A stretch of 47,566 nt of DNA, from NCBI GenBank assembly GCA_015232315.1, contig JADFZZ010000038.1, positions 1 through 47,566 of the forward strand, read 5' to 3'. The position numbers and the translations under genes were made by a program. The notes beneath the pieces were generated by a model. That model worked only from the letters and a program-made list of their open reading frames with translations, did no database searches and was not told the origin of the DNA. Shown here piece after piece: positions 522 through 27,749 of this stretch (positions are counted from its first letter, which is position 1; each line of letters begins with the position of its first letter). The stretch comes from SAR324 cluster bacterium (GTDB lineage Bacteria > SAR324 > NAC60-12).

Positions 522-3500
522 ATGTCTAATTTTGCGTTTTTAGCCAAAGAATGGTCAGAACTGTTAGAAACAGCCCAGGAAGCGGAGAAGAACGTCTATT
601 TGGCTCCAAGAACATGTTGTTTTTATTCACGGTTCACGTTGGAGAGGGCGGTCAAATGGCTCTACAAGCATGATCCCGACCTTCATCAACCTTATGATGA
701 TAACCTGTCTGCGCTCATCCATGAGCAAACCTTTAAAGACAACCTCAGACCTGACCTTTTCCCAAAAATCAAAACCATCCACAAGATTGGAAACCTTGCG
801 GTTCATAGCTCACGACCTATTGGGCATAACGAGTCCGTCCATGTGTTAAGGGAGTTGCATCATTTCCTCTATTGGCTGTATCGTGACTATACAGGTGAGA
901 CCTCTCCAACCAATGTTATCTTTGATCAAGCGCTCCTGCCCCAAGCACAACCTGCTTCTGATCTCACCTTAAAACAACTCAAGGAACTGGACGAAAAGCG
1001 AAAGCAGCAAGAAGCGGAGATTGAGGCAAAAAAAGTGGAATTGTTGCTACAGGAAGCTCACAGAAAGGCGGAACTCCAGGAAAAAGAAGCTCTATTACAA
1101 AAAACAGAGGAAGAGAAAAAGTCTCTCCTGAAAAAATTGCTAGAATATGAGGAAAAGGAACGAAAACAACAAGTTGAGGAAAACAAGGCTCGTAATCAAA
1201 CCCTTCCTGATCCACATGATTATAATGAAGCGGAAACCCGTAAGTATATTATTGATCTTTTGTTACAAGAGGCGGGTTGGAATCCAGGCCAGAAAGAGGT
1301 GCAGGAATACGAAGTCGAAGGGATGCCTTATGGAACCGGAAAAGGTTATGTCGATTATGTATTGTGGGGCGATAATGGACTGCCTTTAGCCGTTGTGGAA
1401 GCCAAAAAAACCACCAAAGACGCAACCGCCGGGAAACACCAGGCTAAACTCTATGCGGACTGTCTTGAAAAAATGAAGGGACAACGTCCTGTTATCTTTT
1501 ATACAAATGGCTATGAAACCTACTTGTGGGACGACTTGAATTACCCTCCTCGTCTGGTGCAAGGGTTTTATAAAAAGGATGAATTAGGACGCTTGATCGA
1601 AGCCCGTCAAAATCGAAAAAGTCTATCCAAGGCTCCCATCAATAAAAATATATCCGGTCGTTATTACCAGGAAGCAGCTATCCGCTACATTACGGAGAGT
1701 TTTGAACATAAAAACCGGAAAGCCTTGCTGGTGATGGCAACAGGCACAGGCAAAACACGCACCGTCATTTCACTCATTGAGTTGTTACAAAAACAGGGAT
1801 GGGTCAAAAACGTGCTCTTTTTAGCGGATCGCAACGCACTCCTCCATCAAGCCAAACAAGCTTTTGCGGAACACCTGCCTCATTCAACGGCAACCATCAT
1901 TTCCTCTTCGGATACCCAGATCCCCAATCGGATTTGCCTATCGACCTATCAGACGATGATCCACCGAATTGATGAAGCCAAAATGGAAGGGAGCAAATTG
2001 TTCAGCCCCGGTCATTTTGAGCTTCTGGTGATTGACGAAGCTCATCGTTCTATTTATCGAAAATATAAAGCCATCTTTGATTATTTTGATTCCTTATTGG
2101 TGGGACTGACCGCAACCCCTAAAGACGAAGTGGACAGGAACACGTACTCGCTATTTGACCTGGAATCTGGAGTTCCGACTTATGCTTATGAGTCTGAACA
2201 AGCCTGGCAAGATGGCTTTCTGGTTCCCCCCAAAGCCTTCAGTGTTCCCTTGAAGTTTCATCGGGAGGGCATCAAATATGCTGAACTTTCGGAGGAAGAA
2301 AAAGAAGACTATGAAATGACCTTTGAGAATGAGGAAACGGGAGAACTCCCCGAATCCATTGATTCCTCCGCCCTGAATCAATGGTTGTTTAATGAAGATA
2401 CCGTGGATAAGGTACTCAAACACCTGATGGAAAACGGTATCAAAGTGGAAGGCGGAGATCGCTTGGGAAAGACTGTGATTTTTGCAAAAAACCATAAACA
2501 TGCGGAATTTATTCAGAAACGGTTTGACGCAAACTATCCTCACTTGATGGGACATTTCACCGCCGTAATTGACAACTACAACAGTTACGCTCAATCCTTG
2601 ATTGATTCCTTCAAGGTTGAAAAAAGTCCAACGATTGCTGTCAGCGTGGACATGATGGATACGGGGATTGATGTGCCTGAAATTGTCAACCTGGTGTTTT
2701 TCAAGATGGTACGATCCAAAAGCAAGTTTACGCAGATGATTGGGCGAGGGACTCGTCTGTGTCATGATTTGTTTGGGTTGGGTGTCGATAAAACCCATTT
2801 TCTGATCTTTGATTATTGTGAGAACTTTGAATTCTTTCAACAAACCCCTGAAGGCGTCAAACCGTCCAAACAAGTCAGTTTATCCGATTCCATTTTTATC
2901 AAACGTTTAAAAATTGCCCACAAACTCAGCCAAGCGGAAGATCCTCAACAAAAGGAATTGCGAACCCAAATCCTGAATATTCTGCACCATGAAATCGCCC
3001 ACATGAACAAACAAAACTGCATTGTGCGGCCAAAACTCAAGTTTGTGGAAAAATACGATAAACGGGAGACCTGGAATGAACTTACGGCTGAAGGAATTGC
3101 GGAAATTGAAGAGCATTTGATGGGGCTACCTTCTGAAATTCCAAATGAGGATTACTTCGCCAAACGATTTGATTCGCTGATTCTATCGTTGCAAATGAGC
3201 TTGCTCACAGGAGCAGGCAACTACTCTAAAAATCAAAGCAAGGTGGTGGAGATTGCGTCTCAACTGGAGGAAAAACGAAGCATTCCGATGGTCAATGTGC
3301 AGATGGAACTGATCCTTGAACTTCAAACGGACGACTTCTGGCAGGACATGACCCTTCCCATTTTGGAAGATGTTCGAACACGAATACGAAATCTGGCTCA
3401 TTTCATCGACAAACAACATCAGAATCTTGTCTACACTGATTTTGAAGACACGATAGGGGACGTCAAAGAGATTGACACCGTTTATATAACAGCCAGTGAG

Positions 3501-6365: not shown

Positions 6366-8152
6366 TTCAATACTTCAAAACCGACCATCGTGATGTCATC
6401 ATTGAAATAAATATCAGTCGCCTTGTCATCCACAATTGCCTGCATTGGTGAATAACCTGAATAATCATGGGCAAACTTAACAATCTTTTTTACAAGTTCT
6501 TCACAAGGCAATTGGCAGTTCTTTTTCAAAAAGTCAAAAAAACGCTCCTTCCCCATCTGATTTCCATTGCTGTCAGCTAATTCGATGATTCCATCCGTAT
6601 AAAGCAGGACCTTGTCGCCTTGTTCAAGAGTGATGCTGTTTTCCACATAGGTGATCATGCTGTTGGGAAACAGTCCAACCATGGTTCCGCGTGTGGTGAT
6701 GGGGAGCACTTCTTTCGTATGTTTTCGAATCACTACCGCTGGTGGATGACCAGCATTACAATAGGTCAGAATGCGGGTTCTTGTGTCATAAATTACATAG
6801 AACATGGTGGCAAATTTTCCCGATTCCAGTTTGTTTTCCAGGTAGCCATTGGTCATGGTTATCACGAGTGAGGGGGATAACCCGGATTTGATACTTTCAT
6901 GAAAAATCGCTGAAACCATGAACGCGATCAAGGCGGCCGAAACACCATGACCTGTTACATCGGCGACCACCATCCCATAAACATCTTTTTCAAGTTCCAT
7001 GATATTATAAAAATCTCCACCAATCTGGAGCATCGGGATGTATTTGGAAAAAAATTTGATGTCAGGATGGACAGGCAATGTGCCTGGCAGCAATATCCTC
7101 TGGGTATCTCTTGCCTGTTCCAGTTCTTCCACCATCTGTAATTGCTGGGATTTCAAGCTTTGAAAGGCTTCCTGAAAGGTTTGTTCCACAAACTGTCTTA
7201 ATTCCATTTCCTTGAGCAACTCCTCATTCAGTTGCCTGGTGGTTGAAAGTGCCTCCTGAACTTCTTTGACCATCTGCAGATTTTTAATCACGGTCACGGT
7301 CATACGAGCCAACGTTTGGGCAAAATCCCAGTCTTCATCATGGAATTTAACCTTTCCAGGCATGCCTGAGAGATTCAGGACACCTACGACGGTTTGATGA
7401 TCCATGAGGGGAACACAAATCAGTGTTTTGGGGAAATCATTCCCGTGCAGAATATATTCAGGATATTCCAGCGTGTTGGGCACAAAGATGATTTGTTTAG
7501 TCACAGCCGATTTGCCAATGACGCCTTCCCCCATCTTGAAACTTCGGGCATAAAACTGCTTTTGCGCATCATCCACGGAGTGTGCTTCATCGAACAGAAG
7601 CACACTGTCATCTTCTTTCTCTGAATAAAAGGTCACAAATTTTAAACAATCCTGCGAGAGGAGATACGCCGATCCCCAGTCGATATTGGTGCGTATCTGC
7701 AATATCCTCATGACATGTTTCAGAGCCTCTTCCTCATTCAAAATACCACTTAGAACTTCACCCGCGACATTGATTGTGGTCAGATCATCAATTTTGTGCC
7801 GTAACCCATTCTGAATGGCCTTCAAATGTTCAACAATCTCATTCATTTCGGAGGTCTGTGGACGCTGAATGGCTACCTGGATATTTCCAGCGGCGATCTG
7901 ATCCATGTCATGGAGAATCCCTTGCAGGGCATTGTTGAGAACCGTTGACAGTTTCATCACGCCAAGCAGCAGGATTGTCCCTGTCAAAAGCAACAGACCT
8001 CCCATTTTCAACCAGATCATTGGTTCGTATTTCAACTGAGCAGGGACAACCCCGATCACGATCCCGATCACGCCCAGAATGGTGATAACGTAGAGGACAA
8101 ATGCCCCGGCAATCAATAGGCTCTTCACGCTTTTATTCATGTGCTCCTTCAA
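6362..8152 (-). CDS. membrane HAMP-GAF-SpoIIE (PP2C-type) serine phosphatase
   Basis: The 596-residue protein has two N-terminal membrane helices (about 12-35 and 45-65), a HAMP-like segment to about 120, a GAF domain at about 130-295, a coiled-coil linker and a SpoIIE/PP2C domain at about 365-595. Metal-binding motifs of PP2C phosphatases are visible: VADVTGHGVSAAL, YTDGIIE and FNDDITMVGF. These enzymes typically dephosphorylate STAS anti-anti-sigma or similar proteins in partner-switching systems, and the GAF domain would sense a ligand. It overlaps the convergent receiver gene by four bases. A STAS protein is encoded at 37145 and is a possible, unproven substrate. Confidence 0.9.
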   Translation of the reverse strand: MKEHMNKSVKSLLIAGAFVLYVITILGVIGIVIGVVPAQLKYEPMIWLKMGGLLLLTGTILLLGVMKLSTVLNNALQGILHDMDQIAAGNIQVAIQRPQTSEMNEIVEHLKAIQNGLRHKIDDLTTINVAGEVLSGILNEEEALKHVMRILQIRTNIDWGSAYLLSQDCLKFVTFYSEKEDDSVLLFDEAHSVDDAQKQFYARSFKMGEGVIGKSAVTKQIIFVPNTLEYPEYILHGNDFPKTLICVPLMDHQTVVGVLNLSGMPGKVKFHDEDWDFAQTLARMTVTVIKNLQMVKEVQEALSTTRQLNEELLKEMELRQFVEQTFQEAFQSLKSQQLQMVEELEQARDTQRILLPGTLPVHPDIKFFSKYIPMLQIGGDFYNIMELEKDVYGMVVADVTGHGVSAALIAFMVSAIFHESIKSGLSPSLVITMTNGYLENKLESGKFATMFYVIYDTRTRILTYCNAGHPPAVVIRKHTKEVLPITTRGTMVGLFPNSMITYVENSITLEQGDKVLLYTDGIIELADSNGNQMGKERFFDFLKKNCQLPCEELVKKIVKFAHDYSGYSPMQAIVDDKATDIYFNDDITMVGFEVLN

Positions 8153-19909: not shown

Positions 19910-21676
19910 ATGCTCAAACCCGGAGTCCGCAACATCGCTTACGGTGCGTCTGACTTTGAACGCATCCGTACAGAAAACCGCTATTATGTGGATAAAACCC
20001 GTTTCATTCCGATGCTGGAAGAAAATTACTACCAGTTTTTGATCCGCCCGCGGCGGTTCGGGAAGTCGCTGTGGGTGTCCATTCTGGAGACGTATTACGA
20101 CATCACCAAAAAAGACCGGTTCGAGAATTTTTTCAAGGGACTCTGGATCGGGGATCATCCCACGGAGGAACGGAATTCCTATCTGGTGCTGGCGCTCAAT
20201 TTTTCAGGTGTGAGTTCGGATATCCGGGAAGTTCGTACCAGTTTTGAAGCGTATTGCCACATCAGGATTAGGGGCTTTTTGTATCGGTACCGTCAGTTTT
20301 TTACAGAACAGGAAATCCAGAAATGGAACAATCCCGCTTTGCCGGTGGCGACCTTGCTGTCCGACCTGTTTGAGACCTGCCTGCAACGTGAGTTGCCGTT
20401 GTATCTCCTCATTGATGAGTATGACAATTTCGCCAACACCATTCTTTCGACCGCGGGAACCGAAGCCTATCATGACCTGACGCACGGCGAGGGTTTTTTC
20501 CGGAATTTCTTCACGGTGCTCAAGGAAGGCACGAGTCACAGTGGTTCGGGGCTGAAGCGGCTGTTCATCACCGGGGTCTCGCCCGTGACAATGGATGATG
20601 TGACCAGCGGTTTCAACATCGGCAGTAACCTCAGTCTGTCGCCGTCCCTCAACGCAATGGTGGGATTCACCCGTGAAGAAGTTCTGGAGATGCTGGACTA
20701 TTACCAGCGCGAAGGCGCATTTGTTCAGGACAGGGACGAAACCATGGACATTTTTGATGAATGGTATGACGGCTACCAGTTCGCGCCGGGACAGCGTGAC
20801 AGTCTGTATAACACGGACATGGTCGTGTATTATATGCGGGATTGTATCCAGACCGGTCAACCGCCGTATGAACTGCTGGATCAGAACATCCGTATCGACT
20901 ATGGCAAACTGCGGCATCTACTGCTGGTGAGCCGTCAGCTCAACGGCAATTTCGATCTGCTCAAAAATATCATGGATACCGGACAGGCGCTGAGTCCGAT
21001 CCACACGAGTTTTCCGTTGGAGCACCTGACGATCCCTGACAACTTCATGTCCCTGCTGTATTTTTTCGGCCTGCTGACCATTGAGGCCGAGGAGATGGGA
21101 GATTTCCACCTGAAAATTCCCAACCGGACCATCGGGCTACTGATGTATGAATATCTGCGGGAAGCGTGGCGGGATGTGGGAACGTTTCGGGTGGAACTGT
21201 GGAAACTGCGGAGCCTGGTTCGGGACATGGCCTGGAAAGGCGACTGGGAACCGTTCTTTGATTTTCTGGCCGGGGCGGTGGCGGCGCAAACCAGTATTCG
21301 GGACTACATGAAAGGCGAAAAAGTGATTCAGGGTTTTTTGCTGGCCTATCTGCATCTGAATGATTTTCTGCTGAGTCACAGCGAACGGGAACTGGGCAAA
21401 GGCTACGCGGATCTGTTTCTGGAACCGTTTCTGCTCAAATACCCCGAAATGTCGTGGGGCTATCTCATCGAATTGAAATATATCAAACGCGACGAACTCA
21501 CCGACACCCGGCTTGAGCAGGAAATCACGAAAGCCCAAACCCAGTTGCGGCAATATCTGGCGGATGACCGACTCAAACAATACCCCGCTCATGTGACCTT
21601 CACCGGCATCATCCTGGTCTATCACGGCTGGGAACTGGTGTATCGGGGAGCGGTCCAGTCAATGTCATCAACTTAA
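19910..21676 (+). CDS. AAA-ATPase_like / PD-(D/E)XK nuclease family protein
   Basis: The 588-residue protein has the N-terminal AAA-ATPase_like domain (Walker-A-like RPRRFGKS at 46-53, Walker B LLIDEYDN at 166-173, sensor-like FITGVSPVTMDDVTSGFN). Its C-terminal PD-(D/E)XK domain (PDDEXK_9 type) has an acidic residue near YADLF and E521-L-K523 in LIELKY. The family is widespread and expanded in many genomes but its function is unknown; a nuclease role is inferred from the fold. AGGAGG precedes the ATG by 4 bases. The last residues (SMSST) and the stop come from a MITE inserted at 21660; the domain itself seems complete. A truncated paralogue faces it. Confidence 0.85.
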   Translation: MLKPGVRNIAYGASDFERIRTENRYYVDKTRFIPMLEENYYQFLIRPRRFGKSLWVSILETYYDITKKDRFENFFKGLWIGDHPTEERNSYLVLALNFSGVSSDIREVRTSFEAYCHIRIRGFLYRYRQFFTEQEIQKWNNPALPVATLLSDLFETCLQRELPLYLLIDEYDNFANTILSTAGTEAYHDLTHGEGFFRNFFTVLKEGTSHSGSGLKRLFITGVSPVTMDDVTSGFNIGSNLSLSPSLNAMVGFTREEVLEMLDYYQREGAFVQDRDETMDIFDEWYDGYQFAPGQRDSLYNTDMVVYYMRDCIQTGQPPYELLDQNIRIDYGKLRHLLLVSRQLNGNFDLLKNIMDTGQALSPIHTSFPLEHLTIPDNFMSLLYFFGLLTIEAEEMGDFHLKIPNRTIGLLMYEYLREAWRDVGTFRVELWKLRSLVRDMAWKGDWEPFFDFLAGAVAAQTSIRDYMKGEKVIQGFLLAYLHLNDFLLSHSERELGKGYADLFLEPFLLKYPEMSWGYLIELKYIKRDELTDTRLEQEITKAQTQLRQYLADDRLKQYPAHVTFTGIILVYHGWELVYRGAVQSMSST

Positions 21677-21903
21677 GCTCCCTCGCCCTGGAAGGGAGAG
21701 GGTTGGGGCAATGTCATCAACTTAAGCTCCCTCACCCTGGAAGGGAGAGGGTTGGGGCAATGTCATCAACTTAAGCTCCCTCGCCCTGGAAGGGAGAGGG
21801 TTGGGGTGAGGGTGAAACCTGGCAGAATCGCTCCCTTTTCCCCCTCACCTAACCTCTCCCCAAAGGGGCGAGGGACTGGTTTTTTCTTAAGTTGACGACA
21901 TTG
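21660..21903. mobile_element. MITE copy b with tandem triplication (244 bp)
   Basis: The ends match the MITE family (CAATGTCATCAACTTAAG and CTTAAGTTGACGACATTG). The left end plus an adjacent CTCCCTC...GGTTGGGG segment occurs three times in tandem (from 21660, 21711 and 21762; about 51 bp each). The interior differs from copies a, c and d. A perfect 10-bp direct repeat GCGGTCCAGT flanks the element (21650-21659 and 21904-21913), which is a target-site duplication. It supplies the 3' ends of both flanking ORFs. Confidence 0.85.
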
Positions 21904-23163
21904 GCGGTCCAGTCGGTCCGGAGAATGGTTCGGGTTTCCACCCCCGGAACGTTCCTCCAACACCTCGGCAAAAAATTGCCAGTACAGACCTTCCATCACA
22001 TAGTTGGGAATTTTGAATCGCAGACGGTTGCCCATGTCCTGATCGATGCTGATGAGTCCGAGATAAAACAGCAGGCTGATGAAATCCTGGGTGGTGAAGC
22101 GTTTGTCAAAACTGAACTGGGAAGTCAAAGAGGAATACAGACAGCCTTCCCGCATGAGCTGATCCAGCACCTCATGATTCCGCTGTCGGTCGCGTAAATC
22201 AAACAGTCTCCGGATCTTGCCGTAGTCACTGGCGATGTTGACGTCCAGCATCTCACGGGGATATTTGAGTTCGTGGGAATATTCATTGGCGAAATACAGC
22301 ACCATGTCCGGATTGTAGAACCGGGGGCAGTCGGGTTCAAAGCGATAACCGTTATACCACTTGCGGGCATCGGCCATAACCGCCTCAATCCGGTCTTCCG
22401 TACAACCAACTCCCTGGAAAATCTCACGGGTTTCCTCTTCGGTAAAACCCATCATCGGATGGAAAATTTTGCTCAGACTCAGATGTTTGGCAATGTTGAA
22501 TCCACTGGTCAGGCTGTCGAGAGTGACAGGGGAAACACCGGTGATGAACATCCGGTCGATAATTCCCCGGCCCGTGGCTTCCTTGATCGCCTCGTAAAAT
22601 TTGCGCACAAATCCGTTTCCGCTCACCATGTCGGAAAAATGATCGAACTGGAAGCCCAGGATCTCATTGGCGAAATGGTCATATTCGTCAATCAGCAGAT
22701 AGATCTTTTTGTCCTTATGCTGATCCAGAAACTGCTTCAGCAGTTGGGACGCCTCCAGATTGTCCGCGAAATCAAGCGGAGTCAGGCCATAGTCCTGCTC
22801 AAAATTCCGGAGTCCGCTCAGAACATTGAAGGCAAAACCCTGACGTGTGCTTTCCGGTGTGTCGGTGTGAATCCCGCTGAACTCAAACCTCAGGACATGG
22901 TAAGTTCCGGCTAGGGGTGTGGGCTGTTGCCCGATCCGGTATTTGCCGAACAATTCCCCGAACCGATGTTTGTGTTCCAGGCCGTAATAGTGATGCAGAA
23001 TCGAAATCCACAGGCTCTTGCCAAAGCGTCGGGGACGCAGAAACACCAGATAGGCTTCCGGGAGATTTTCCAGTTTTTCCAGAAACGGAGTGCGGTCGAT
23101 GAAATGATAATTTTCGTTCACCAGTTTGGGAAAATGGCTGATACCATAGGGAAGTCGGAGCAT
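21766..23163 (-). pseudogene. truncated AAA-ATPase_like paralogue lacking the nuclease domain
   Basis: The frame encodes 465 residues. The first about 400 match the AAA-ATPase_like domain (RPRRFGKS at 43-50, LLIDEYDH at about 155, FITGVSPVTLDSLTSGFN). The order of motifs matches the gene at 19910. After FFAEVLEERSGGG the sequence leaves the family: the PD-(D/E)XK domain (about 170 residues in the partner) is missing, and the remaining about 55 residues are encoded by the MITE. The break lies near 21940, inside the junction with the convergent gene, so a rearrangement removed the 3' part before the MITE came in. An ATPase-only product could still be made. Confidence 0.75.
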
Positions 23164-23790: not shown

Positions 23791-23864
23791 TAAATTCTTT
23801 TGCCATTTTGCGCAGAATTTAACTTCCAAGATTCTAACCAGAATGGAAAACAATGGGGGAATCC

Positions 23865-25517
23865 ATGAAAAAAGCGATCCGTTTACAAATGGTCATGATG
23901 GGGTGTATCGTTTCACTGTTGAGTGGCTGTGCCGAAGAAGAAAAAGCGACGGCCAGCATAAAAGTGGACCAGACACAGGTAGTTTCAGGAGAATCTCTGA
24001 TCTTTGACGCACAAGACGCGATTTTTGATGAGATCGAATGGTATCAGGATGACCAGAAGATTCCAGATTGTCAGAACAGCGATCAATGCCAGATCACGTT
24101 CTACTACGACCAACTCACCGCCACAGAGGAAACCTCCTCCAACGGTCTGCAAAAACAGTCCAGTGTGAAAATCAAGGTCAAGAAGGCCAAAGCATCCGGG
24201 GATATTCCGCTATTAGGCGATTTGATGAATCCTTCACAAGATTCCTCGGATGAGGGCACCTTGACCCTCCTCGTCTCACCGGCAGAGGAATTATCCACGA
24301 CCGTGGCAACGGACGAGACCACCAACAGTTCCGACAGTTCAAGTTCCAGCACGACAACCACCACGACAGCGGACACCACTACTTCTTCGTCAACCACGAC
24401 AGCGGACACCACCGTTCCATCCAGTCAATCTGTTTCGATCAACAATGGAGCCTCATCAACGACGAACACCGCCGTTACCTTGACGTTGTCAGCGAAAGAT
24501 AATGTGGGAGTGACAGGCTATTATGCTTCGGAAAGTTCAACTCCCACCCCATCCCAGTCTGTGGCAGGGTGGACTGCGGTGACCGCGACCGCCAATTATT
24601 CGGCTACAGTGAATTTTACGCTGAGCAGTGCCAGTGGCGTGGGAAGTTATACCCGCACAGTGTATGTGTGGTTCAAGGATGCGGCGGGAAATGTATCAAC
24701 CTCAGCCAGTGCCACCATTCAACTGGTCATCGCGGAGACCACCGTTCCTGCCAGTCCCGCTATTGTCCTCAACAAGGTCGGTACAGGTTCCGGAGCCTAT
24801 GGCACATCGTTCAGCACAATAGCTCTTTCTTTGTCTGCTACGGACAATGTGGGTGTCACCGCCTGGTACGCTTCAGAAACAGCGACAACCCCGGCGGCGA
24901 CAGACGGGGCGTGGACCAGTGTGACGGCGGCAACCAGTTATTCCGGAACCGGCGGTTTTGTGCTGAGTGCAGGCAATGCCACCAAAACCGTTTATGCCTA
25001 GTTCAAGGACGCGGCGGGAAATATTTCTGCGTCAGCGAATGACACCATCGTGTATCAGACGGTCTCAGCGTTGACACTACCTGATACCGGACAAACGACT
25101 TCATACACCAGCACTTTCGGTGAAGACCATGATTACACACTCCGTGCACCGTCTTACACCAACAATGGCAGTACGATCACGGACAATATCACCGGACTGG
25201 TGTGGCAGAAGGAAGATGACAACAATATCTACCCCTGGGGCGGCGCGGTAACGTATTGTGATAATCTGACGCTGGGCAGTCAATCGGACTGGCGCTTGCC
25301 CACCCGCCGGGAACTGATGAGCATCGTGGATTATGGAGTGTTCAATCCAGGCATCAACAGTACGTATTTCCCGAACACGAATTCCTCGTCGTATTGGTCT
25401 TCGTCGTCGAACGCCAACAATTCGAGCGAAGCATGGCGCGTATACTTCGACTTCGGCAACGTGAGCTCCACCCTTAAGTTCTTTAGCTACAATGTCCGGT
25501 GCGTTCGTGGAGGGTGA
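23865..25517 (+). pseudogene. lipoprotein with Ig-like repeats and a DUF1566 (Lcl_C) domain, split by an amber codon
   Basis: ATG 23865 follows GGGGGA. The leader ends LLSGC, a lipobox. The mature part has a beta-rich N-domain, a Ser/Thr linker (about 145-185) and two Ig-like repeats of about 85 residues, each with DNVGVT and a terminal FKDAAGN(V/I)S. TAG at 24999-25001 stands where the first repeat has TGG (VYVWFKDAAGN against VYA-stop-FKDAAGN). The frame then continues without shift to TGA 25515-25517, encoding a DUF1566 domain (GLVWQKEDD, DWRLPTRREL, YWSSSS, NVRCVRGG). One G-to-A change explains the break, so this is one gene of 550 codons. An internal ATG at 25050 might allow a secreted-signal-less C-terminal product. 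The last 66 bases look like a hypervariable segment. Confidence 0.85.
25443..25508 (+). other. candidate DGR variable region, copy A
   Basis: Aligned with 26417-26482 without gaps, these 22 codons keep all 22 third bases while 12 codons differ at the first and/or second base (for example TAC/CTC, GAC/ATC, TTC/GGC, AAC/TCC, TTT/GGT). Every changed codon ends in C or T. This fits mutagenesis of AAC and AAT codons of a template. Confidence 0.7.
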
Positions 25518-25536
25518 GACGGTGATTTGGTAATTT

Positions 25537-25554
25537 GGTGATTTGTTCCACAGG
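25537..25554 (+). other. conserved block downstream of variable region A
   Basis: GGTGATTTGTTCCACAGG begins 20 bases after the stop codon and recurs at 26514, also 20 bases after its stop. A second shared block, GAGACAGGG followed by a CGCC...GTCAGG motif, starts 64 bases further on (25601). These may be retrohoming signals or simply duplicated flank. Confidence 0.45.
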
Positions 25555-25648
25555 CAGTGGAGTGGCGGGAACAAGGTTTGAGGAGTAGTCTCGTTGTTAT
25601 GAGACAGGGGAATCCCGCCGTCAGGCTGGCTTTATTTTTTTGTCAGCG

Positions 25649-25812
25649 GAACGCCGGTAGCGTCGGGTTACGTCCCGACGTTTTGTGGAATGATCCCATG
25701 CCAGAGCGAACGCCGGTAGCGTCGGGTTACGTCCCGACGTTTTGTGGAATGATCTCCTGCCAGAGCGAACGCCGGTAGCGTCGGGTTACGTCCCGACGTT
25801 TTGTGGAATGGC
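25649..25812. repeat. tandem 59-bp repeats with hairpin
   Basis: Three direct copies start at 25649, 25708 and 25767; the third is incomplete. Each carries CGTCGGG, a 6-base loop and CCCGACG, a perfect 7-bp stem. An inverted relative of the GGTAGC...GGGTTACGTCCC motif follows at about 25811-25840. No coding role is seen. Confidence 0.85.
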
Positions 25813-25863
25813 AGTGGGACGTAACCCACTGCTACCGTTTTCGTTCTGACTGATTCATGTTAC

Positions 25864-25908
25864 GTGTACAATACCAACTATGTGCGGTGCGTTGGTGGAG
25901 GAAAGTGA
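25864..25908 (+). pseudogene. tail fragment of a third DUF1566 gene
   Basis: The frame reads VYNTNYVRCVGGGK and stops at TGA 25906-25908, matching the last residues of the two DUF1566 domains. The last variable-type codons are AAT ACC AAC TAT, again varying at bases 1 and 2 only relative to the other two copies. Everything upstream is lost and replaced by the tandem repeats. Confidence 0.6.
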
Positions 25909-26051
25909 TCCGGCTGGAACTCTATAAACAGAAAGCCCACCAGCAAGGGCTGAATTATATCGTCGTAGCGAAAGACGGTTATTATCTGAAGAATCTGAAA
26001 AAACGAACGGTCACGGAAATAGTCACCTTTATCACAACGGAGAAGCTATGA
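25905..26051 (+). CDS. small protein upstream of the DUF1566 gene
   Basis: GTG 25905 overlaps the stop of the DUF1566 tail fragment, and the stop TGA overlaps the ATG of the next gene (ATGA at 26048-26051). The 48-residue product is basic, with LNYIVVAKDGYYLKNLKK. No family is recognised. The overlaps suggest translational coupling in a small operon. The start is uncertain, as an in-frame ATG lies at 25857. Confidence 0.45.
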   Translation: MIRLELYKQKAHQQGLNYIVVAKDGYYLKNLKKRTVTEIVTFITTEKL

Positions 26052-26494
26052 AAGCAATCATTCAAGGACTCATGTTATGCGGATGGATCTTCATTCAGGG
26101 CTGGAATGTTCACGCCGCCATCCCCTACACGGACAACGGGAACGGCACGGTGACTGACAGTTGGACTCAACTGGTGTGGCAAAAGGAAGATGATGACACC
26201 ACCCGCACGTGGGAACAGGCGTTGACCTATTGTGAAGCACTGGTGCTGGGCGGACAGAACGACTGGCGCCTGCCCAACATCCGTGAACTGGAATCCCTTG
26301 TGGATGCCGCCACCTATTCCCCGGCAATCAACAGCACGTATTTCCCGAATACGAATTCCTCGAACTATTGGTCTTCGTCGTCGAATGCCAACTATTCGAG
26401 TGACGCGTGGATGGTGCTCTTCATCGGCGGCTCCGTGGGCTACGGCAATAAGTCCGGTACCTACTATGTCCGGTGCGTTCGTGGAGGATCGTGA
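26048..26494 (+). CDS. secreted DUF1566 (Lcl C-terminal) domain protein
   Basis: The 148-residue product has a signal peptide (about 1-23, cleavage likely after VHA) and one DUF1566 domain: GNGTVTDSWTQLVWQKEDD, DWRLPNIRELESLVD, FPNTNSSNYWSSSSNANYSS and a C-terminal YYVRCVRGGS. The domain is C-type-lectin-like and is found in surface and ligand-binding proteins, some of them targets of diversity-generating retroelements. The two paralogues share almost identical sequence around FPNTNSS and YWSSSSNAN but differ strongly in the following segment (25443-25508 against 26417-26482). It overlaps the small gene before it. The likely role is binding at the cell surface or outside. Confidence 0.85.
   Translation: MKAIIQGLMLCGWIFIQGWNVHAAIPYTDNGNGTVTDSWTQLVWQKEDDDTTRTWEQALTYCEALVLGGQNDWRLPNIRELESLVDAATYSPAINSTYFPNTNSSNYWSSSSNANYSSDAWMVLFIGGSVGYGNKSGTYYVRCVRGGS
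26417..26482 (+). other. candidate DGR variable region, copy B
   Basis: This is the partner of 25443-25508. Outside it, the 13 preceding codon pairs show ordinary third-base changes (AAC/AAT, AGC/AGT, GCA/GCG, GTA/GTG); inside it none occur. The encoded residues lie where the ligand surface of C-type-lectin-fold DGR proteins sits. Confidence 0.7.
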
Positions 26495-26586: not shown

Positions 26587-26604
26587 ACCGCCCGTCAGGG
26601 CGGT
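26587..26604. other. 7-bp stem, 4-base loop hairpin
   Basis: ACCGCCC, loop GTCA, GGGCGGT. It lies 93 bases after the DUF1566 stop and has no T-run. DGR targets often carry a GC-rich short hairpin downstream of the variable region; a plain transcription-end hairpin is the alternative. The loop does not fit the GRNA pattern reported for phage DGR hairpins. Confidence 0.4.
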
Positions 26605-27150
26605 CGAAATCTGACTGAACATGAAACATGTCGCTAAACTTTCGAGACAGGAAAAAATCCAGGGGCTTGATCTGATTTACGGCTACACCAAACCATTATT
26701 TTTGATTACTCCCTATGAAGTGAGTGAGTTATGAAACCGAATGAAATGCCAACGGCCTTAAAGGAGGTTTGCCCAGGCTTCCTTCAGACATTCCCTCACG
26801 GGTTTGCCCTTGCCATCGGCTAGAAGTTTATGACATACATCCTGTTAGGAAGAGGTTTGTTTTCTCGGTTTGCCGCCTGGTTTTCCGGCGGTTCCACACT
26901 ATTTCTTCCATGAGAAATGGTGCCAGTGGCTACTCTTCAGGGGACTTTCACCCCATCGTACACAAGTAAATTGAAAGTATTTTTTGACCACCGCAATTTT
27001 TTCAAAAGATCTTGCAAAGTTGTTTGTTCATTACTTTTTCAAGGTTCAACAGAGTGGTCAAAAAAACTCTCATTCATGGCGTTGGACTTGTGGCCTTTGT
27101 AACCTTAAGAAGCCGTATAATAGTCTGAATTTTTAAATTTTGTTGAGACG
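26605..27150. other. gene-poor region
   Basis: Two tiny overlapping frames exist: 26621-26734 (37 codons, containing YTKPLFLITPYEVSEL) and 26731-26823 (30 codons), joined by ATGA. Neither is recognised, and they may be remnants. A 12-bp inverted repeat, TTTTTTGACCAC at 26980-26991 and GTGGTCAAAAAA at 27054-27065, encloses 62 bases and could be a small mobile or regulatory element. TATAAT at 27116-27121 is a possible -10 box for the next gene. Confidence 0.4.
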
Positions 27151-27465
27151 ATGAAACAAAAAGAGTTAATTCAACACGTGAAACAAGCTATTTTTGAAGT
27201 AGAACCTAATGCCGAAGTGATTCTGTATGGTTCACGTTCGCGTGGTGATTTTAACAATGATTCGGATTGGGATTTTCTAATTTTAGTAGACCGAGTGGTC
27301 TCTGATAAGCAGGTTGATTGTATCAGACATCGTCTATATGAAATCGAGTGGCAAGCGGGAGAAGTTATTTCCTCCATTATACGAAGTCGCCAAGAGTGGA
27401 ATAGCCCCCTGTACCAAGTGATGCCCTTACATCAGCGTATTGAACAGGAAGGAATCAAAGTGTGA
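27151..27465 (+). CDS. MNT-type minimal nucleotidyltransferase (antitoxin MntA-like)
   Basis: The 104-residue protein has the polymerase-beta-like nucleotidyltransferase motif GSRSRGDFNNDSDWDFLI, with the GS and the D-x-D metal ligands intact. In MNT-HEPN pairs the MntA protein inactivates the HEPN RNase toxin by adenylylating it. The stop overlaps the GTG start of the HEPN gene (GTGA), the usual coupled arrangement. It appears intact while its partner is broken. Confidence 0.85.
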   Translation: MKQKELIQHVKQAIFEVEPNAEVILYGSRSRGDFNNDSDWDFLILVDRVVSDKQVDCIRHRLYEIEWQAGEVISSIIRSRQEWNSPLYQVMPLHQRIEQEGIKV

Positions 27466-27749
27466 CAGAATCCATTAAAGACTTGGTAAATTATCGTTTG
27501 ACACGTTCTGAGGAGACTTTGGAAGAAGCTAGAATTTTAGCCAATGTCGGACACTGGAACGCCTGTGTTAATCGTCTCTACTATGCTTGTTTCTATGCGG
27601 TATCCGCTCTATTAATTCTGGATAATCTTTCTTGTTGTGGTCTAATAACTTTGGAGTATGCATATTCCCGATCCTCTGCTAAAGTGAAGAAAAAGGAGGT
27701 GGATTTTCTGGATTCCAGGGTTTTCGCCCGGAATGATACTGTGGAGTGA
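27462..27749 (+). pseudogene. HEPN-domain toxin, 3' part replaced
   Basis: The first about 55 residues match HEPN proteins paired with MNT enzymes (YRLTRSEETLEEARIL, then NRLYYACFYAVSALLI). After residue about 55 the expected C-terminal half, including the R-x4-6-H RNase motif, is absent. It is replaced by sequence running into a TTCGCCCGGAATGA-type interspersed repeat. The product would lack the active site. GTG 27462 is coupled to the upstream stop. Confidence 0.7.

What the first reader, a model, noticed from the sequence alone, without database searches (positions are those of the whole stretch)
25443..26482. DGR-type hypervariable ends in two DUF1566 genes
The 22 codons at 25443-25508 and 26417-26482 align without gaps. 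All 22 third bases are identical, but 12 codons differ at base 1 and/or 2 (19 changed bases), all in codons ending in C or T. The 13 codons just before show the opposite: about nine third-base changes. Ordinary divergence gives mostly third-base changes. Adenine-directed mutagenesis of AAC/AAT codons from a template repeat gives this pattern. The domain is C-type-lectin-like, as in known DGR targets. No RT or template repeat lies in the window, so a trans-acting or lost DGR is implied.
Basis: partly seen in the sequence, partly recalled or inferred. Interest (0 to 1): 0.88.

Follow-up and report, generated by a model that had tools for sequence, protein, structure and literature searches.

The report
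Hypermutated lectin genes, broken retroelement
Two neighbouring lectin-like genes (and three more copies elsewhere in the same bacterial genome) carry the mutation signature of a diversity-generating retroelement, and the gene-scrambling machinery itself is still visible between them as a broken stump, so this is a recently dead member of a known system rather than a new one.

Summary
Five copies of this block exist in the genome (window x2, C1 x2, C2 x1). Across all five, 0 of 22 third positions vary, against 12/22 and 12/22 at positions 1 and 2; in the 23 preceding codons 11/23 third positions vary. The base and amino-acid spectrum resembles that of 44 template/variable repeat pairs in related DUF1566 DGRs. 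The DGR reading is therefore supported.

Between the two genes lies a broken DGR core: the last 39 nt of a template repeat (25867-25905), which contains RT codons 1-10, followed after an internal deletion of about 450 codons by the RT's last 47 codons (25908-26051), ending on the start of the second target. Intact relatives have the same order (target, template, RT with MutS-like tail, target), including one in the same class, Ca. Lambdaproteobacteria RIFOXYD2_FULL_56_26, whose template also matches two remote variable repeats. No intact RT, Avd or template is in this 95%-complete assembly.

Orphan DGR targets are already known (Treponema denticola). Verdict: new member of a known kind, decayed, diversified until recently.

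The parts
23853..25517 (+). Target gene 1: lipoprotein-like N-terminus and a C-terminal Lcl_C (DUF1566) domain. One reading frame is interrupted by a single in-frame TAG at 24999-25001 (Trp in the same motif of the C2 homologue), so it is probably a pseudogene.
25383..25513 (+).
25655..25810 (+). Three 59-bp tandem units with an 18-nt palindrome (GTCGGGTTACGTCCCGAC), found only here in the genome, sitting where relatives carry avd and the 5' part of the template
25867..25905 (+). Template repeat remnant (last 39 nt): TAC AAT ACC AAC TAT GTG CGG TGC GTT GGT GGA GGA AAG. It has A at the positions that vary in the five VRs and ends with the template-type GGAAAG.
25880..25909 (+). RT pseudogene, first 10 codons (MCGALVEESD), overlapping the template end as in intact relatives
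25908..26051 (+). RT pseudogene, last 47 codons (MutS-like tail) after an internal out-of-frame deletion of about 450 codons; the stop codon overlaps the ATG of target 2
26048..26494 (+). Target gene 2: signal-peptide-like start plus Lcl_C (DUF1566) domain at 26144-26482
26357..26487 (+).

Best explanation
The two DUF1566 genes are targets of a diversity-generating retroelement that once lay between them as target 1 - (avd) - template repeat - RT with MutS-like tail - target 2. In its working state the RT copied the template repeat, misincorporated at adenines, and the cDNA replaced the C-terminal block (variable repeat) of these two genes and of three further lectin domains on two other contigs. 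This randomised the first two bases of Asn (AAY) codons on what is inferred to be the binding surface of a C-type-lectin-like domain of predicted surface lipoproteins. The core has since been destroyed in place: the 5' part of the template and the avd region are gone, and the RT has lost about 450 internal codons out of frame, leaving 10 N-terminal and 47 C-terminal codons. Shown by sequence: the five-copy VR pattern, the remnants and their junction, and the lack of another RT, Avd or template in the assembly. Inferred: former activity, its recency, and a ligand-binding role for the targets.
For: VR pattern: 0/22 third positions vary over five copies, against 12/22 and 12/22 at positions 1 and 2; pairwise third-base differences 0/220 in the block, 52/230 just upstream. 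Template evidence: the same-class genome G043 (Ca. Lambdaproteobacteria RIFOXYD2_FULL_56_26) has a complete DGR with bAvd, an RT with the DGR motif PIGNLTSQ and a template whose two cis VRs differ at 19 and 16 A positions and 0 non-A positions; the same template matches two remote VRs on another contig (15 and 19 A changes, 4 and 5 non-A). Spectrum: at AAY positions base 1 is A36 T30 G26 C8 % here and A35 T33 G26 C6 % in 44 relative pairs; base 2 is A44 G28 T20 C8 against A58 G27 T9 C7. Remnants: the tail peptide matches RT C-termini of DGR loci (E=5e-9 to 1e-4), and a tail profile finds it in the whole genome at E=1.8e-7, the only better hit being ordinary MutS. An inferred-template BLAST finds the five VRs and the 25866-25901 remnant, all other hits being E>=2. 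RT-MSL relatives share GGAAAGTG, mostly GGAAAGTGATC, at the template end running into the RT start, as the window does. Gene order matches intact loci. Fold: AlphaFold model pLDDT 90, best PDB hit the Legionella Lcl C-terminal domain 8q4e (E=2.5e-5), then C-type lectins.
Against: No intact RT (PF00078), bAvd or template is in the genome, so activity cannot be shown. The inferred template beyond its last 39 nt is a reconstruction from the VRs, and the BLAST query included the remnant's own TACAATACCAAC, so that hit is partly circular. Target 1 has two non-A departures from the template remnant (AGC for ACC, AAT for TAT), and one C1 copy has TTG for GTG. The AAG codon holds two adenines but never varies, although relatives show the same (46 of 48 pairs unchanged). 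The known VR-downstream hairpin is not convincingly present.
Confidence: 0.92

Rival explanations
1. The targets are still being diversified in trans by an intact DGR that the assembly lacks (unassembled ~5%, another replicon, or a phage or mobile element).
For: The third bases are still identical in all five copies (0/220 pairwise differences), so the last homing was recent; the same-class intact DGR has remote VRs on another contig; the assembly is 95.18% complete in 88 contigs.
Against: No RT, bAvd or second template in the assembly. The cis core is deleted. Viral-contig hits with a similar skeleton differ at the 3' anchor. In the 30 other genomes of the family the G043 DGR RT finds only weak hits (best E=1.4e-13, about 30% identity).
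Confidence: 0.12
2. Ordinary paralogue divergence with gene conversion or positive selection on a ligand-binding loop, without any retroelement.
For: Positive selection can raise first/second-base change, and gene conversion can keep paralogues alike.
Against: Neither predicts zero third-base change with nearly every variable codon of the NNC/NNT type, nor a spectrum close to that of DGRs, nor a DGR template end and RT tail in the intergenic gap.
Confidence: 0.02
3. The gap between the genes is an assembly error: an intact RT was collapsed or mis-joined.
For: Tandem repeats lie upstream (25655-25810), and the assembly is a draft in 88 contigs.
Against: The junction has only about 3 nt of possible microhomology (ATC), not a k-mer-length repeat; an intact RT would be expected on another contig but none is found.
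Confidence: 0.06

Closest known systems
Ca. Lambdaproteobacteria RIFOXYD2_FULL_56_26 DGR (G043:C42; MFNF01000042.1)
   Same: Same taxonomic class, DUF1566 targets on both sides of template and RT, RT with MutS-like tail, homologous template, remote VRs
   Different: Intact: RT 509 aa, bAvd, full template; the window's copy is a deletion remnant
RT-MSL DUF1566 DGRs of Desulfoarculaceae (L114), Desulfocapsa (L116), Nitrospinota (L099), Nitrospirae (L121, L125), Trichlorobacter (L130)
   Same: Template end GGAAAGTGATC overlapping the RT start, target after the RT, tail homologous to the window peptide (up to 51% identity)
   Different: RT open or nearly so (L121 and L125 look frameshifted); other phyla
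Treponema denticola DGR isolates lacking RT and TR (PMC4891356)
   Same: Orphan targets with VRs in genomes without RT or template
   Different: Those are recognised from sister strains; here the stump of the core itself is in place
Pseudogulbenkiania NH8B distal targets with a strongly mutated RT nearby (PMC3521204)
   Same: Decayed RT near VR targets
   Different: There another RT remains in the genome; here none is found
Bordetella phage BPP-1 DGR
   Same: Adenine-directed mutagenesis, C-type-lectin-fold target
   Different: Complete; target Mtd; hairpin 4-34 bp downstream of VR in phage DGRs (PMC3240598), not clearly found here

Membership tests
Functional diversity-generating retroelement | Intact DGR-clade reverse transcriptase | tested here: not met
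   No PF00078 match in the genome; only RT codons 1-10 and the last 47 codons remain at 25880-26051
Functional diversity-generating retroelement | Template repeat | tested here: inconclusive
   Only the last 39 nt remain (25867-25905); no full copy by pattern or BLAST
Functional diversity-generating retroelement | Avd accessory protein | tested here: not met
   No PF22296 match even at E<=1
DGR variable-repeat targets (decayed DGR) | Variable repeats differing at template adenines only | tested here: met
   Five copies, 0/22 third positions variable, spectrum similar to known template/VR pairs; tested directly against the template only over its last 39 nt
DGR variable-repeat targets (decayed DGR) | VR at the C-terminus of a C-type-lectin-fold protein | tested here: met
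   Lcl_C; model and Foldseek to Legionella Lcl C-terminal domain and C-type lectins
DGR variable-repeat targets (decayed DGR) | Hairpin or cruciform shortly downstream of VR | tested here: inconclusive
   ACCGCCC-GTCA-GGGCGGT lies about 100 nt after VR2 and one C1 VR, further than 4-34 bp and with a loop outside GRNA
DGR variable-repeat targets (decayed DGR) | Variation among strains or cells restricted to A positions | not testable with these tools
   No reads or same-species genomes available here

The most novel reading that the evidence does not exclude
The cis core died but the targets are still diversified by an RT supplied in trans from an unassembled or mobile element, so that orphan lectin genes depend on a foreign DGR.
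Probability: 0.12. Interest if true: 0.65.

Novelty: new member of a known kind. Interest (0 to 1): 0.5.

Why it matters
DGR surveys mostly start from the RT, so genomes that have lost it are missed. This case shows that VRs can be recognised from target genes alone (third-base identity with first/second-base scrambling), and that the deletion which ended the system can be read at base level. It gives a way to find orphan DGR targets and ask what becomes of a hypervariable lectin once its diversity is frozen. I found no paper in the open-access library joining DGRs with SAR324 or Lambdaproteobacteria, though that library is incomplete.

Tried and rejected
1) An RT elsewhere in the genome: PF00078 search and protein search with the G043 RT; no intact RT. 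2) The C40 hit of the RT-tail profile (E=4.6e-9) looked like a stand-alone MutS-like accessory gene, but it is the N-terminus of ordinary MutS, apparently frameshifted. 3) Avd-like hits in L051 (E about 0.01-0.04) lie antisense to the target gene; rejected. 4) The window remnant as a third variable repeat: less likely than template, because it ends in the template-type GGAAAG and runs into RT codons 1-10. 5) A second intact copy of the template: pattern and BLAST found none. 6) A conserved VR-downstream hairpin: too far from the VR and present at only two copies. 7) Sister genomes of the same family with the same VRs: none.

Full report
Observation. The two blocks align as stated: 22/22 third bases identical, 12 codons changed, 19 changed bases, all at codon positions 1 or 2. 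Both genes end in an Lcl_C (DUF1566) domain (E=4e-35 and 3e-39). A genome-wide pattern search that fixes the non-A skeleton and leaves the variable bases free finds five copies and none for the reversed control: window x2, C1 x2 (tandem domains of one 865-aa gene) and C2 x1 (gene). Over all five, variable sites by codon position are 12/22, 12/22 and 0/22; in the 23 codons before, 9/23, 7/23 and 11/23. Pairwise third-base differences are 0/220 in the block and 52/230 before it. Two more Lcl_C domains on C66 show the same kind of pattern with a slightly different skeleton (GTC for GTG, two third-base differences) and may come from another template.

What makes such a block. The same-class genome G043 has a complete DGR: RT with motif PIGNLTSQ, bAvd (PF22296), a template repeat and DUF1566 targets on both sides. 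Its template differs from its two cis VRs at 19 and 16 A positions and at no other position, and from two remote VRs on contig C61 at 15 and 19 A positions with 4 and 5 others. A template-type pattern found 17 viral and 35 genome loci. In the template/VR pairs read from them, adenines of Asn codons had changed in 551 of 1018 cases (54%) and non-A bases in 50 of 2220. The spectrum of the window family at presumed AAY codons (base 1 A36 T30 G26 C8 %) resembles that of relatives (A35 T33 G26 C6 %), as does the order at base 2 (A>G>T>C in both); Ser and Tyr head the list here, Tyr, Asn and Ser in relatives. A reconstituted BPP-1 DGR also favours Tyr, Ser and Asp from AAC (PMC12875486).

The core is in the window, broken. 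Searching the genome with the G043 RT gave one weak hit, at window 25914-26033. Against DGR loci the same peptide matches the MutS-like C-terminal tail of RTs with E=5e-9 (L114, 47%), 3e-8 (L116), 9e-8 (L121, 51%), 3e-6 (L099) and others. A profile of that tail finds it in the whole genome at E=1.8e-7; the only better hit is ordinary MutS. Just upstream, 25867-25905 reads TAC AAT ACC AAC TAT GTG CGG TGC GTT GGT GGA GGA AAG. At its first five codons the VRs read TCC/TTC/TCC/TAC/TCC, GGT/TTT/TAT/GAT/GTT, ACC (AGC once), TAC/TAC/AAC/TCC/TAC and TAT (AAT once). Over the first 35 nt, 5 of 7 A positions in these codons vary and 2 of 28 others do, both in target 1 (Fisher p=0.001). RT-MSL DGRs share a template end GGAAAGTG, mostly GGAAAGTGATC, where VRs mostly have GGACAG or GGATAG; the window has GGAAAGTGATC. 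In those relatives the RT start codon lies inside the template end, and the window keeps RT codons 1-10 (25880-25909). It then jumps to the tail, out of frame, with a possible ATC microhomology. By comparison with the 509-aa G043 RT about 450 codons are missing. The tail's stop overlaps the ATG of target 2 at 26048; relatives likewise start a target just after the RT.

How it worked, and its state now. The inferred order is target 1 - (avd) - template - RT - target 2, with further targets in trans. The 5' part of the template and the avd region are replaced by a locus-specific array of three 59-bp palindromic units. No PF00078 RT, bAvd or full template occurs elsewhere in the 95.18%-complete assembly. 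Target 1 has an in-frame TAG at 24999-25001, further decay. With no third-base change over 22 sites in five copies, the last homing must be recent (by a rule of three over about 110 branch-sites, under roughly 3% per lineage; my estimate). The RT was therefore lost recently or is supplied from unseen DNA; the first is more likely.

Target fold. An AlphaFold2 model from a 27-sequence alignment has mean pLDDT 90.3. Its best PDB match is the Legionella Lcl C-terminal domain 8q4e (Foldseek E=2.5e-5), followed by C-type lectins; a sequence profile also finds 8q4e (E=2e-7).

Comparison with the known. DUF1566 is a recognised DGR target domain (PMC4159848, PMC6642488), multiple VRs per template are common, and MSL (PF01624) is a known DGR accessory (PMC10053308). 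Orphan targets without RT or template are known in T. denticola (PMC4891356), and a mutated RT near distal targets in Pseudogulbenkiania (PMC3521204). This locus is a new member of that kind. What is uncommon is that the stump of the core can be read base by base between two of its targets.

Limits. No reads or sister strains were available, so activity and strain variation are untested. The full template is inferred. The AAG codon at 25476 and 26450 has two adenines and never varies; in relatives it is unchanged in 46 of 48 pairs, which I attribute to selection on a family-conserved lysine, though protection from mutagenesis is not excluded.

Noticed in passing
25476-25478 and 26450-26452; loci: An AAG codon inside the hypervariable block stays unchanged in all five VRs and in 46 of 48 relative template/VR pairs, although Asn-codon adenines change at 54%. 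Selection on a conserved Lys or local protection from mutagenesis.
   Followed up: partly
L053 (G000:C66) 2461-3195: Two further tandem Lcl_C domains with DGR-like blocks on a different skeleton (GTC for GTG), suggesting a second, older template.
   Followed up: partly
24999-25001: In-frame TAG in target 1 at a Trp-type position (VYA*FKDAAGN, compare VYVWFKDAAGN): nonsense mutation or sequence error.
   Followed up: partly
25655-25810: Three 59-bp tandem units with palindrome GTCGGGTTACGTCCCGAC, found nowhere else in the genome at up to 3 mismatches, with a diverged palindrome just downstream.
   Followed up: partly
26588-26606; L051 about 6700-6725 (- strand): Hairpin ACCGCCC-GTCA-GGGCGGT about 100 nt after VR2 and after one C1 VR; degraded after VR1. 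Terminator or remote VR hairpin.
   Followed up: partly
27151-27746: Nucleotidyltransferase and HEPN gene pair (MNT/HEPN type), the HEPN frame apparently truncated.
   Followed up: no
19910-23163: Two convergent AAA-ATPase_like genes (PF09820), one with a PDDEXK_9 nuclease domain, side by side upstream of target 1.
   Followed up: no
L152 (G043:C61): Two remote VRs matching the G043 template on another contig: evidence for trans diversification in the intact relative.
   Followed up: yes
L149 7569-9304 (G000:C40): The chromosomal mutS reading frame appears shifted about 100 codons in, followed by a masked stretch.
   Followed up: no
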